From a virus, in IMG/VR virus record IMGVR_UViG_3300034072_000375, positions 1 through 64,000 of that record: a DNA stretch of 64,000 bases. One strand, given 5' to 3'. The translations under genes and the position numbers were made by a program. Below, piece after piece: positions 6,942 through 64,000 of the stretch. Each line of letters starts with the position of its first letter. Within the stretch, counting starts at the first letter, position 1. The notes under the pieces were generated by a model. The model had not been told where the DNA came from. It worked only from the letters and a program-made list of their open reading frames with translations, and made no database searches.

Positions 6942-7247
6942 TTACTCAGGCATATACATTCTTTGAATAGCTTCTTTGATGATCTTATAACCTTTCTTTT
7001 CGTCATAACTTTCAAGGTATCCGTCAATGATTTCACCTTGGATGATTTCATGCATTACAAGAGTATGATAAAGCTCTGATTCCCAATTTGAATTACCAAA
7101 AGGGCGCTTACCACTAAAACCGTCACCTTCTTCCCACAAAGAAGAAAGAAGTTCTTGCAAGTAATCTCCAATTGTGTCTGCACTTGCATCGTTTTCTTGC
7201 ATTGGCAGATTAAGAATATCTTGTACTGTGTATTTAACTTTAGTCAT
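6942..7247 (-). CDS. Hypothetical acidic protein (101 aa)
   Basis: Starts MTKVKYTVQDILNLPMQEND after AAGGATGAAT. Acidic and probably helical at both ends. No recognised family. The upstream gene's stop lies 3 nt away, so the pair is coupled. Confidence 0.8.
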   Translation of the reverse strand: MTKVKYTVQDILNLPMQENDASADTIGDYLQELLSSLWEEGDGFSGKRPFGNSNWESELYHTLVMHEIIQGEIIDGYLESYDEKKGYKIIKEAIQRMYMPE

Positions 7248-27624: not shown

Positions 27625-28566
27625 ATGAAACTTATAGACTTAACAGGTAAGAGATTTGAAAGACTTACAGCGGTAAGGGTGTCGGGTCATAAACCCGTTA
27701 AGTGGGAATGTGTCTGCGATTGTGGCAATGTAGTAAATGTTTCCGCAGGTAATCTCACAAAGAAAACAAATTCAACACGTTCGTGCGGTTGCTTGTGGGC
27801 TTCTGATATTAAAATTGAAGTGGGACAAGTCAGAGATTCAAACTCGGGTAAGTTCGAGGTTGTTGAATTACTTGGAGGAGAAAAAGTCCTTTGTAGATTC
27901 GAAGACGGAAATACTGTTGTTGCACAAAAAGGAAACATCCGAATTGGCAACGTATGGAATCCGTATTATCCGGCCATTCATGGGATGGGATTTGTTGGAG
28001 TAGGAGATTACTCAACGAAAATTAAGGCTCATCATTATTGGTCTAAAATGATGCAGCGTGCGTATTGTCCTATTTATAAAAAAGAACATCCAACGTATGA
28101 AGATGTTACCGTGAGTCCTGATTGGTTAAATTATCAAATATTTGCTGAGTGGTGTACCAAAAGAAAGCAGTACGGAAACATGGGGTACAATCTTGATAAA
28201 GATATCATCGTCAGAGGAAACAAAATTTACTCAGAAGATCACTGTACACTTGTACCTCAAAGAATTAATAAGTTACTGATAACTAAAACAAACGTGCATT
28301 CAGATACGCCTCTTGGTGTAAAAAGAATTAAGGATAAATTTAACAGGGTGATAGGCTACACTGCGACTTGTCATGATAATGGAAAAGAACTATACTTCGG
28401 CTACTATTCTAATCCAGCAGATGCTTTCTTTGCTTACAAAGCAGGAAAAGAAGCCTTGATTAAGAGGGTTGCAGATGAATACAAGCACATGTTAGATGAC
28501 AAAGTTTACGATGCTTTGTTAAAGTATGTAGTCTTTGACACAAATGGAATTGTTCAAATAGATTAA
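27625..28566 (+). CDS. Homing-endonuclease-like protein with zinc motif and AP2 domain
   Basis: N-terminal cysteine cluster WECVCDCGN and SCGCLW, typical of a group of phage endonuclease-like proteins, then WSKMMQRAYC, LDKDIIVRGNKIYSEDHC, TLVPQRINKLLI and a C-terminal AP2-like DNA-binding part (TPLGVKRIKDKFNRVIGYTA). It sits between the primase-helicase and the DNA polymerase, a favoured site for free-standing homing genes. AAGGATTTGTAAAT precedes the start. Confidence 0.75.
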   Translation: MKLIDLTGKRFERLTAVRVSGHKPVKWECVCDCGNVVNVSAGNLTKKTNSTRSCGCLWASDIKIEVGQVRDSNSGKFEVVELLGGEKVLCRFEDGNTVVAQKGNIRIGNVWNPYYPAIHGMGFVGVGDYSTKIKAHHYWSKMMQRAYCPIYKKEHPTYEDVTVSPDWLNYQIFAEWCTKRKQYGNMGYNLDKDIIVRGNKIYSEDHCTLVPQRINKLLITKTNVHSDTPLGVKRIKDKFNRVIGYTATCHDNGKELYFGYYSNPADAFFAYKAGKEALIKRVADEYKHMLDDKVYDALLKYVVFDTNGIVQID

Positions 28567-41988: not shown

Positions 41989-42017
41989 TAGACATTTTAA
42001 GAAGTAAGGGGTATAAT
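41989..42017 (+). promoter_or_regulatory. Promoter inside a dyad
   Basis: TAGACA (41989-41994), 17 bp, TATAAT (42012-42017). The -10 lies in the loop of a dyad: AAGAAG/AGGGG on the left, CCCCT/CTTCTT on the right (41999-42034). A new transcript starts in the 3' arm and cannot form the hairpin. Drives 42050 and the ribonucleotide reductase genes. Confidence 0.7.
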
Positions 42018-42049
42018 CGTTATTCCCCTCTTCTTGCGAAAGGAGAAAT

Positions 42050-45355: not shown

Positions 45356-45424
45356 TTGACAACTAAAATCTAATGCTATAAGATACCCCTCATTGGCTCC
45401 TTGTCGGTGAGGGGTTTTATTTTA
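45356..45424 (+). promoter_or_regulatory. Fused promoter and terminator
   Basis: TTGACA (45356-45361), 17 bp, TAAGAT (45379-45384) is followed at once by ACCCCTCA (45385-45392), loop, TGAGGGGT (45408-45415) and TTTTATTTT. Transcripts from upstream can form the hairpin and stop; transcripts starting here (near 45391) lack the 5' arm and read on into the RNA ligase gene. Confidence 0.75.
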
Positions 45425-49293: not shown

Positions 49294-49755
49294 TCACAGT
49301 GCGATCCCCCCCGCTTGAATGAACAAGGCGTCAAGCTGCTCGTCTGTCATGCCCAGCCCAGCGGCGGTAGCATTGAGAAACGGGCTGGAGCGCTCCCATG
49401 TCAGGGTGTCGTTGAGCGCCACGTCGGCAAGTGCGCGCTGTGTTGGGTCTTGGATAGATGCCGCGTAATCGAGCACTGCGCCCCACAAGCCCTGCATGAT
49501 TAGGGCCGCTTTACCTTGGGCGCGGGTGATCTGTTGCGGAACGGGGATTGGCTGAGGCTCAGGCGGCACATAGGTGGCCTCTACTTCTGCAATTAGCGCC
49601 TCGTACTGAGCAGCGTCTGCGCCAAGATCAGCGCGGAGCATATCCATCTGTGCATTGCTGTACGCTTGGCACTTGATGACCACATCGTTTTCATCAACCC
49701 ATGTGGCTTCAAGTGCCGGTGCATTTTCGTAGCGGATCAGTTGTTTGAGGGTCAC
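49294..49755 (-). CDS. Tail fibre assembly chaperone-like protein (153 aa)
   Basis: Beginning MTLKQLIRYENAPALEATWV, with a proline-rich hinge PPEPQPIPVPQQITRAQGKA and a helical C-terminus (LAVRT-free; GMTDEQLDALFIQAGG). This layout is common in betaproteobacterial and pseudomonad prophage tail modules downstream of the fibre gene. The gene is GC-rich compared with the rest of the window and overlaps the fibre gene by 4 nt, indicating the pair moved together. Confidence 0.7.
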   Translation of the reverse strand: MTLKQLIRYENAPALEATWVDENDVVIKCQAYSNAQMDMLRADLGADAAQYEALIAEVEATYVPPEPQPIPVPQQITRAQGKAALIMQGLWGAVLDYAASIQDPTQRALADVALNDTLTWERSSPFLNATAAGLGMTDEQLDALFIQAGGIAL

Positions 49756-62402: not shown

Positions 62403-62423
62403 AGTAATTTCCTTTCTGTTGGT

Positions 62424-62462
62424 TAAAATAAAAAGCCCTCTCTCTTTATGTCATAGGGCTTT
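62424..62462 (-). terminator. Terminator just after a promoter
   Basis: Read leftward: AAAGCCCT (62462-62455), loop, AGGGCTTT (62439-62432), then TTATTTT. It ends the GIY-YIG transcript. It also lies 25 nt past the start predicted from the promoter at 62494-62522, so that promoter could make a ~63-nt RNA unless read through. Confidence 0.8.
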
Positions 62463-62493: not shown

Positions 62494-62522
62494 ATTATAC
62501 CACACAGAAAGGAATATTGCAA
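62494..62522 (-). promoter_or_regulatory. Leftward promoter before the G/GT genes
   Basis: Read leftward: TTGCAA (62522-62517), 17 bp, TATAAT (62499-62494). Placed at the end of the GIY-YIG gene and pointing toward G/GT, with a terminator hairpin in between. Confidence 0.75.
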
Positions 62523-62523
62523 G

Positions 62524-63600
62524 CTAATTAACCAACCTCCAGCCTTTACAACTCTTGTTTGGATTCTTTGGTTGAACTAGCGTATCAAAGGTGTGCCCGA
62601 ACTTTTCTTTAAACTCCATACGAGTACCTTTGAAAACTTCCCCGCTTTTGTGCTGGAGACTGTAAACGTTTCTATCCCTATTAGATGTTCGCGTAGCCTC
62701 CGCCTCTTTTTCTGCCAAGCACCAATCTTTAACCGAAAAAGCGGTTTTACAATTAACAAAAAGAGTCCAAACATCTATATTATAAACCTGTTTAAATTCT
62801 GATCTTGTTCCTTCAAATATCTCTCCGGTTTTAAGGTTTTTGAACTCATAAGTATTTTTATCCGCACGAGCACACCTCTCCCCTTTTAATGGATTTAGTA
62901 AATGCTCTATGGAAAACTTATCTAATGTCTCTGACATAGCCCAACCCTTGAGGGTTCTTCTATTGCCACTAATTAAATCTGAAATATTAACTCCTACGAG
63001 ATTCTTGTCAAATTCTACCAACTCGTGGCGAGTAAAATTGAAAGTCTTGCCGGTTAAAAGCTGTACAAAAGTATACACTTTATTGTCAACCCTTTTTCCA
63101 TACTTTCCAGCATATCCGAAGGTAGATGCTAAGACTTCATCTTTTGTGAGAAAACCCTCTACCGCCCAATTTTTGCTTGTTTTCGAAAATCCAGCCATTA
63201 TTCCGTTCAACTGTACTTCAGGGAATTTCTTATTAAATTGTGCCCTGGTTCCTATAAATTGTTCTCCGGTTTTTAAGTTGTGAAATGTATAAATTTCTCG
63301 GTCTAGTCTAGGGCTTGCCTCCCCAGAAACACCATCACCACCGGCTTTTAGGTTTACTAAAGGACCGTCACCTGTGTTGCGCCTTCCGTAATAGTCAATT
63401 AGAAGTGTTTCAAGTTCAAGTGCGTACCATTCTTGCAAATTGTCTGCAACTATCTCTACGGTACATCCGTGTTTTTCATAAACAGCTTCCCAGAATGGGT
63501 TTCGGTTATTGAACACCCACGCACGATCACGACAACCCTTACCGACATAGAAAACTTCTCCAGTTGTCTTCTTCTTGTGCAAATATACATAAAAATCCAC
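62524..63600 (-). CDS. GIY-YIG homing endonuclease with four repeats
   Basis: Residues 1-85 form a GIY-YIG nuclease: YVYLHKKKTTGEVFYVGKGC, then the catalytic-type ELETLLIDYYGRRN. The rest consists of four copies of a ~60-residue module: YTFHNLKTGEQFIGTRAQFN, VYTFVQLLTGKTFNFTRHEL, YEFKNLKTGEIFEGTRSEFK and VYSLQHKSGEVFKGTRMEFK, each followed by a W-containing helix; likely DNA-binding. It lies between two promoter/terminator units inside the tail operon, which limits its effect on the flanking late genes. Confidence 0.88.
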   Translation of the reverse strand: MDFYVYLHKKKTTGEVFYVGKGCRDRAWVFNNRNPFWEAVYEKHGCTVEIVADNLQEWYALELETLLIDYYGRRNTGDGPLVNLKAGGDGVSGEASPRLDREIYTFHNLKTGEQFIGTRAQFNKKFPEVQLNGIMAGFSKTSKNWAVEGFLTKDEVLASTFGYAGKYGKRVDNKVYTFVQLLTGKTFNFTRHELVEFDKNLVGVNISDLISGNRRTLKGWAMSETLDKFSIEHLLNPLKGERCARADKNTYEFKNLKTGEIFEGTRSEFKQVYNIDVWTLFVNCKTAFSVKDWCLAEKEAEATRTSNRDRNVYSLQHKSGEVFKGTRMEFKEKFGHTFDTLVQPKNPNKSCKGWRLVN

Positions 63601-63625
63601 ACCAAAACTCCTTTCAGAAATGAAA

Positions 63626-63685
63626 AATCCTCCTAAAGCCCGAAAGCAATAGGAGGATTATAGCACACTAAATTTTAGGTGTCAA
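63626..63685 (-). promoter_or_regulatory. Fused terminator and consensus promoter
   Basis: Read leftward: TTGACA (63685-63680), exactly 17 bp, TATAAT (63662-63657), the full sigma70 consensus. It overlaps a hairpin AATCCTCCTA (63659-63650)/TAGGAGGATT (63635-63626) followed by TTTCATTT. Transcripts from the tail gene upstream stop; new transcripts start near 63650, at the end of the 5' arm, and pass. Same layout as 45356-45424. Confidence 0.8.
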
Positions 63686-63686
63686 C

Positions 63687-64000
63687 TTACAGGGAGGTAT
63701 CTTGAATCAATAGAGTAGACTCAACAAGTCCCGTGGTGGTATTGCTATTCAATAGAGCAGTAAAGGAGTGGTCGCGGGTGATGCCCATTTCGCCATCGGA
63801 CGGATTATTAGACGACAGTTTCACGACTGGCATAGAGAAAGAAACAACTTCTGCATCTTTTTCTTCTCCTGTTGCAAGAGCAACAACAACACTGATTCGT
63901 GCTTCATCGTCAAAGTAATCTCGGAAAGTTCCATCTTGAAAATAAGTGCTCATATTTCCAGACACCCGAATTCTTCCGGTGAATATATCAGCATTGAAAT
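63687..64000 (-). CDS. Tail tube-like protein, 5' end outside window
   Basis: Open to the window edge; reads FNADIFTGRIRVSGNMSTYF near the edge, then DGTFRDYFDDEARISVVVAL and MGITRDHSFTALLNSNTTTG. This looks like the C-terminal part of a major tail (tube) protein, which fits its place before G/GT and the tape measure. Identity is inferred mostly from position. Confidence 0.6.
   Translation of the reverse strand, partial: FNADIFTGRIRVSGNMSTYFQDGTFRDYFDDEARISVVVALATGEEKDAEVVSFSMPVVKLSSNNPSDGEMGITRDHSFTALLNSNTTTGLVESTLLIQDTSL

What the first reader, a model, noticed from the sequence alone, without database searches (positions are those of the whole stretch)
63626..63685. Consensus sigma70 promoter built into a terminator hairpin next to a homing endonuclease
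A perfect TTGACA-17-TATAAT sits so that transcription starts at the base of a terminator's 3' half. This is the same logic as at 45356, and a looser version is at 41989-42034. The repeat of this arrangement suggests a general design of this phage for independent units in dense operons.
Basis: partly seen in the sequence, partly recalled or inferred. Interest (0 to 1): 0.6.

Follow-up and report, generated by a model that had tools for sequence, protein, structure and literature searches.

The report
Promoter built into a terminator hairpin
A freshwater phage starts transcription of a homing-endonuclease gene inside the hairpin that would otherwise stop, or silence, transcripts arriving from the tail genes upstream, and its relatives keep the same trick at this gene and at their DNA polymerase gene.

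Summary
Confirmed. On the minus strand, TTGACA-17-TATAAT (extended -10 TGC) starts one base after the tail-tube stop codon and runs into a terminator-type hairpin (63659-63626, -18.4 kcal/mol, T tail), followed by the RBS and GTG start of a GIY-YIG-like endonuclease gene. Predicted +1 (A63650) is the last base of the hairpin's 5' arm, so transcripts from this promoter cannot form the terminator (-3.8 versus -18.9 kcal/mol), while readthrough transcripts can.

Relatives show it is not chance. Four relatives with a homologous endonuclease at the same junction carry promoter-hairpin-gene, with the -35 overlapping the tail stop codon. Relatives without it have an ordinary terminator followed by a separate promoter. 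One filled/empty pair shows promoter, hairpin and gene inserted together. At a second junction (primase-polB), 32 relative loci keep a promoter whose -10 lies in a terminator's loop or 3' arm, with compensatory stem changes. A general design is not supported: genome-wide enrichment is weak, and the units concentrate at a few junctions.

It works like the T4 I-TevI/mobE promoter-in-hairpin, but uses a sigma70 promoter fused to an intrinsic terminator. It is a new variant of a known kind. A second unit at 62522-62402 hides the tail-chaperone RBS from readthrough transcripts. No transcript data exist.

The parts
63680..63685 (-). -35 hexamer TTGACA, one base after the tail-tube stop codon
63657..63662 (-). 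-10 TATAAT with extended TGC; its AAT is also the foot of the hairpin
63650..63650 (-). predicted transcription start (A, 7 nt after the -10), last base of the hairpin 5' arm
   Evidence: inference from promoter geometry; not mapped
63626..63659 (-). terminator-type hairpin AATCCTCCTA / TAGGAGGATT, dG -18.4
63618..63627 (-). T-rich tail TTTTTCATTT after the stem
63608..63614 (-). Shine-Dalgarno AAAGGAG of the endonuclease gene, outside the hairpin
   Evidence: sequence
62524..63600 (-). GIY-YIG-like homing endonuclease gene, 358 aa, GTG start
63687..63998 (-). 3' end of the tail-tube gene just upstream
   Evidence: Phage_tube_2 3e-5 (below the Pfam cut-off), phrog_290 3e-9
62494..62522 (-). 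second promoter TTGCAA-17-TATAAT right after the endonuclease stop codon
62504..62514 (-). TTCCTTTCTGT in the spacer of the second promoter: 11-nt perfect complement of the tail-chaperone RBS
62409..62419 (-). ACAGAAAGGAA, RBS of the tail assembly chaperone gene, hidden in readthrough RNA
   Evidence: unpaired 0.0 in readthrough versus 0.48 in own-promoter RNA
62425..62462 (-). weak terminator-like hairpin AAAGCCC..GGGCTTT with TTATTTT tail inside the second unit
45356..45423 (+). promoter abutting a terminator: TTGACA-17-TAAGAT and hairpin 45385-45415 (dG -21.9), between thioredoxin and RNA ligase genes
41989..42034 (+). TAGACA-17-TATAAT with the -10 in a hairpin loop, after a thyX-like gene; no U tract

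Best explanation
This is a self-contained expression unit carried by a free-standing GIY-YIG homing endonuclease gene inserted between the tail-tube and tail-chaperone genes. RNA polymerase coming from the tail-tube gene transcribes the whole hairpin and U tract and is mostly released, which insulates the endonuclease gene from the strong structural-gene transcription. RNA polymerase that binds the nested consensus sigma70 promoter starts at the end of the hairpin's 5' arm, so its RNA cannot form the terminator and it goes on into the endonuclease gene. In the closest relatives the hairpin's 3' arm also supplies the gene's putative Shine-Dalgarno, so leak-through RNA would be poorly translated as well; in the window phage the Shine-Dalgarno lies just downstream and termination is the main effect. 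Shown: the sequence anatomy, the loss of folding in the shorter RNA, the conserved arrangement in relatives, and promoter, hairpin and gene inserted together in one filled/empty pair. Inferred: termination, promoter activity, the start site, and homing.
For: (1) Anatomy and folding. (2) Relatives with a homologous GIY-YIG gene at the same junction (L098, L110, L117, L153) all have TTGA(C/T)(A/T)-17-TA(T/C)AAT-hairpin-T tract-ATG; the -35 overlaps the tail stop codon and the stems differ in sequence; the scan finds them independently. (3) Empty-site comparison L146 versus L153: the same from AGCTTAGATAATTGACG onward; promoter, hairpin and gene are all absent from the empty site. (4) HEG-less relatives have a separate terminator and promoter there (DC31). 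(5) Same architecture upstream of polB in 32 relative loci; in 12 distinct sequences 100% of cells pair, 4 of 9 pairs change on both sides, covariation 0.460 versus 0.218+-0.035 in shuffles. (6) Rare by chance in shuffled genomes. (7) In L098, L110, L117 and the P26059A HNH gene the putative SD is 0.00-0.01 unpaired in readthrough RNA and 0.28-0.73 in own-promoter RNA.
Against: There are no transcript data for any of these phages; start site, promoter use and termination are predictions. Enrichment against an intergenic placement null is weak. The window sequence is known only from one genotype (L002, L011, L084 and L164 are identical to it), so conservation rests on relatives whose protein is 38-43% identical. 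No GIY-YIG Pfam model reaches threshold. The SD switch is not predicted for the window instance (0.51 unpaired in readthrough, 0.28 in own RNA) nor for L153 (0.05 in own RNA).
Confidence: 0.72

Rival explanations
1. T4-type translational switch is the main function: the hairpin exists to hide the gene's RBS in readthrough RNA, and the U tract is incidental.
For: Putative SD inside the 3' arm in L098, L110, L117 and L153; P26059A HNH hairpin has no U tract yet has the -10 in its loop and the SD in its 3' arm; the window's second unit has an 11-nt anti-RBS arm; outer pairing over the window start codon is better than in 989 of 1000 flank shuffles.
Against: At 63626 the SD lies outside the hairpin and is not freed in the own-promoter RNA; polB units have the SD downstream of the hairpin and unchanged (0.33 versus 0.32 in DC31), yet keep stem and U tract.
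Confidence: 0.2
2. Plain proximity: a terminator of the upstream gene and a promoter of the downstream gene are squeezed into the same short intergenic space with no functional coupling.
For: Weak enrichment against intergenic placement; most relatives use separate terminator and promoter at this junction.
Against: Precise, repeated geometry (the -10 overlaps the foot of the stem in all five HEG units); polB stems covary while the -10 stays in loop or 3' arm across 32 loci; the unit came in with the HEG in the L146/L153 comparison.
Confidence: 0.12
3. The inverted repeat is a DNA operator for a repressor, perhaps the endonuclease itself (as I-TevI autorepresses), not an RNA structure.
For: Palindrome overlaps the promoter; I-TevI binds an operator overlapping its own promoter (PMC2988022).
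Against: Arms differ between phages; departures from Watson-Crick pairing in the polB set are G-U pairs of the sense-strand RNA (for example GCCTCAAGT/ACTTGGGGC in L016); a T tract lies on the same side each time.
Confidence: 0.08

Closest known systems
T4 I-TevI / I-TevII / I-TevIII, segB and Aeh1 mobE promoter-in-hairpin control (PMC2988022)
   Same: Phage homing-endonuclease gene; a hairpin forms only in readthrough RNA; the gene's own promoter is placed so that its RNA lacks the 5' arm.
   Different: T4-type units use phage middle/late promoters and act on the RBS; here the promoter is a host-type sigma70 consensus, the hairpin has a terminator's U tract, and in the window the SD is outside the stem.
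seg43(25) hairpin of Aeromonas phage 25 (PMC2988022)
   Same: Stable hairpin immediately upstream of a HEG RBS that does not hide the RBS.
   Different: No nested consensus promoter or terminator role is described in the text read here.
T4 mobE internal terminator (about 30% termination, PMC2988022)
   Same: A terminator limiting readthrough at a HEG between two essential genes, with a fresh promoter for the downstream gene.
   Different: Terminator and promoter are separate and the terminator lies inside the coding region.
Terminator-proximal RNA polymerase reinitiation (PMC6978380, PMC11347151)
   Same: A terminator with a promoter within a few bases might favour re-use of the released polymerase.
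   Different: An in vitro phenomenon for separate sites; not tested here.

Membership tests
T4-type promoter-in-hairpin HEG control | Hairpin forms in readthrough RNA but not in RNA from the nested promoter | tested here: met
   -18.9 versus -3.8 kcal/mol; start site predicted, not mapped
T4-type promoter-in-hairpin HEG control | Hairpin hides the HEG RBS, which is freed in own-promoter RNA | tested here: not met
   Window SD 0.51 unpaired in readthrough and 0.28 in own RNA; met in L098, L110, L117 and P26059A HNH, not in L153
T4-type promoter-in-hairpin HEG control | Nested promoter is a phage middle/late promoter | tested here: not met
   Consensus sigma70 with extended -10
Intrinsic terminator | Stable G+C-containing stem followed at once by a U tract | tested here: met
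   10-bp stem, TTTTT then CATTT; the tail is moderate, and the simple consensus scan (loop limit 8) did not list it
Intrinsic terminator | RNA release in vitro or in vivo | not testable with these tools
   Needs an assay
sigma70 promoter | TTGACA-17-TATAAT with TGn | tested here: met
   12 of 12 with TG
GIY-YIG homing endonuclease | GIY-YIG core motifs (Y-x-Y, YVG, R, E, N) | tested here: met
   YVY, FYVG, R26, E62/E64, N83 invariant in five homologues; similarity to annotated GIY-YIG or homing endonucleases; weak PDB profile hit to a GIY-YIG protein, E 0.006; no Pfam GIY-YIG hit
GIY-YIG homing endonuclease | Occupied and empty sites in related phages | tested here: met
   L153 versus L146, and the many HEG-less relatives
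GIY-YIG homing endonuclease | Cleavage of the empty site | not testable with these tools
   Needs protein

The most novel reading that the evidence does not exclude
Free-standing homing endonucleases carry a portable 60-bp terminator-promoter switch that lets them invade strongly transcribed operons without disturbing or being expressed from them, and such switches have been taken over at junctions of essential genes (polB, and in this phage the tail chaperone), where they set independent expression and survive later HEG insertions on either side.
Probability: 0.25. Interest if true: 0.7.

Novelty: new variant of a known kind. Interest (0 to 1): 0.5.

Why it matters
It shows how a mobile gene can enter a dense phage operon with little disturbance: one short element stops incoming transcription and starts its own. 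It extends the promoter-in-hairpin logic of T4 homing endonucleases to sigma70 promoters, to transcription termination, and to a replication gene (polB) in freshwater siphoviruses. It gives a comparative data set in which the stem covaries while the promoter stays fixed. It also gives a simple compact part to test: terminator for incoming traffic, promoter for the next unit.

Tried and rejected
General genome design: rejected as stated, because only 3 of 39 strong intergenic terminators in three genomes carry a nested promoter, and the scan of relatives' loci (which were fetched around chosen genes, so this is not a whole-genome survey) finds units almost only at polB and HEG junctions.
41989 as a terminator: rejected on its own sequence (z -0.15, no U tract), though L245 has the same layout with other arms.
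RBS switch at the window HEG: folding does not free the SD.
Conservation in near-identical contigs: L002, L011, L084 and L164 have no mismatch to the window, so they are not independent.
DNA similarity in isolated phages: megablast found nothing, blastn one 86-bp piece in DC31.
9-nt anti-RBS match at 7247: no promoter or clear hairpin seen between the arms on inspection, dropped.
Five-sequence MAFFT of the HEG hairpins misaligned the window, so no covariation count is claimed for them.
Two papers on the isolated relatives (PMC5964084, PMC12195039) do not contain the words promoter or terminator.

Full report
WHAT IS THERE. The window is part of a 74,818-base virus record. By its tail and DNA polymerase genes it is related to Limnohabitans phage DC31 and Curvibacter phage P26059A (polB 64-65% identical), both with long tails in the papers describing them (PMC5964084, PMC12195039). 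On the minus strand the tail-tube gene ends at 63687. One base later begins TTGACA (63685-63680), then 17 bases ending in TGC, then TATAAT (63662-63657). The -10 runs straight into AATCCTCCTA-N14-TAGGAGGATT (63659-63626), followed by TTTCATTT, AAAGGAG and the GTG start of a 358-aa gene (63600-62524). The hairpin folds at -18.9 kcal/mol, z -5.6. With +1 seven bases after the -10 (A63650) the RNA loses the whole 5' arm except its last base and folds at only -3.8 kcal/mol, no better than shuffles.

THE GENE. The 358-aa protein has YVY...FYVGKG, R26, E62/E64 and N83, invariant in five homologues, and resembles annotated phage GIY-YIG or homing endonucleases. A profile of the five finds a GIY-YIG protein in the PDB weakly (E 0.006); no Pfam GIY-YIG model is matched. 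It is probably, not certainly, a GIY-YIG homing endonuclease.

RELATIVES AT THE SAME JUNCTION. A search with the tail-chaperone alignment gave 80 loci. Most have no gene between tail tube and chaperone; there, as in DC31, a terminator is followed by a separate promoter, typically TTGATT-17-TATAAT. Four relatives (L098, L110, L117, L153) carry a 222-224-aa homologue at this place (38-43% identical). In all four the sequence is TTGACA, TTGACT or TTGATT overlapping the tail stop codon TGA, 17 bases, TATAAT or TACAAT, a hairpin beginning at the AAT of the -10, a T tract and the ATG. Stem sequences differ but pairing is kept. Comparing filled L153 with empty L146, the two match from AGCTTAGATAATTGACG onward (61 identical bases, then two more blocks with a few changes), and both have TCTGCAGCTT before the insertion. 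The promoter, the hairpin and the gene are therefore one inserted block. In these four the putative SD (GTGGGG, GATGGG, GTGAGG) lies in the hairpin's 3' arm. It is fully paired in readthrough RNA (0.00 unpaired) and freed in own-promoter RNA in three (0.57, 0.28, 0.73) but not in L153 (0.05). In the window the SD is outside the hairpin and the calculation does not show release (0.51 in readthrough, 0.28 in own RNA).

A SECOND, BETTER SAMPLED JUNCTION. Upstream of polB, DC31 has TTGACG-17-TAGACT in which 5' arm, loop and 3' arm of a terminator hairpin overlay spacer and -10. P26059A has TATACT in the loop of AGTCCAGAA..TTCTGGACT-TTTACTTTT. A search with the polB alignment gave 73 loci, and an automated scan finds such a unit directly upstream of polB in 32 of them. 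In 12 distinct sequences every one of 108 cells pairs, 4 of 9 pairs change on both sides, and the covariation score is 0.460 against 0.218+-0.035 in 500 shuffles (0/500 reach it) and at most 0.152 when slid. The unit stays when another gene has entered upstream (L020, L025, L065) and is present in front of an HNH-like gene inserted before polB in L037. The window phage has an extra ORF (27625-28566) and no unit there. At the thyX junction L245 has a -10 in the loop of GGAAGGA..TCCTTCC, the same layout as window 41989 with different arms.

CHANCE. Scanning with promoter score >=11 and an overlapping hairpin of <= -10 kcal/mol with a T tail, the window phage has 2 units and DC31 has 1, against 0.07 each in block-shuffled genomes. 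P26059A has none at this cut-off because its polB -35 is poor. A stricter null, which puts terminators at random non-coding places, gives 3 of 39 against 0.59 expected (P 0.02) at score >=12 and no significance at lower cut-offs. So the count alone would not carry the claim; the comparative evidence does.

MECHANISM. Shown: geometry, folding difference, conservation, covariation at polB, joint insertion in the one empty-site comparison. Inferred: incoming polymerase is stopped at the U tract; the nested promoter starts RNA that cannot form the stem and so passes. This insulates the endonuclease gene from tail-gene transcription and gives it its own, host-polymerase start. Released polymerase might also be re-used at so close a promoter, as seen in vitro for separate sites (PMC6978380, PMC11347151); not tested.

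COMPARISON. T4 I-TevI, II, III, segB and Aeh1 mobE use the same logic with a hidden RBS and their own middle/late promoters; seg43(25) has a hairpin that does not hide the RBS; T4 mobE has an internal terminator and a fresh promoter downstream (PMC2988022). The P26059A HNH gene at 49735 fits the classical T4 form: -10 in the loop, SD GGAG in the 3' arm, no U tract. The window unit works like these but fails two defining features (hidden RBS, phage-type promoter), so it is filed as a variant and not as a member.

NEXT DOOR. Directly after the endonuclease stop codon lies TTGCAA-17-TATAAT (62522-62494). Its spacer holds TTCCTTTCTGT, an 11-nt perfect complement of the chaperone RBS ACAGAAAGGAA; the fold is -37.4 kcal/mol, z -4.7. 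It is the longest such match among 169 candidate gene starts in the genome, where 5 is typical. Readthrough RNA hides the RBS (0.0 unpaired); RNA from this promoter frees part of it (0.48) but still carries a weak terminator-like hairpin.

VERDICT. The claim of a general phage design is only partly supported.

Noticed in passing
window 62522-62402 (-): Promoter right after the HEG stop codon whose spacer is an 11-nt perfect complement of the tail-chaperone RBS; readthrough RNA hides the RBS, own RNA does so less. A weak terminator-like hairpin lies between promoter and gene.
   Followed up: partly
P26059A (L010; record about 49790-49735, - strand): HNH endonuclease gene with TAAAAT in the loop of a hairpin whose 3' arm holds the SD GGAG: classical T4-type control without a U tract.
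   Followed up: partly
L192 about 1400-1495, L185 about 1400-1498: Two further GIY-YIG genes with a -10 in or against an upstream hairpin (L192: TATAAT in the loop, SD in the outer stem, then a T tract).
   Followed up: partly
L037 1820-2500; L020, L025, L065 about 1830-2440: The primase-polB junction is hit repeatedly by HNH-like or other extra genes, on either side of the conserved promoter-terminator unit.
   Followed up: partly
window 27625-28566 (+): Extra 313-aa ORF between primase and polB (its start, MKLIDLTGKRFE, resembles HNH endonucleases from memory); the promoter-terminator unit kept by relatives is absent here.
   Followed up: no
L154 2793-3000: Another relative with a long AT-rich tail tube-chaperone spacer and a chaperone start the match did not resolve; not examined.
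   Followed up: no
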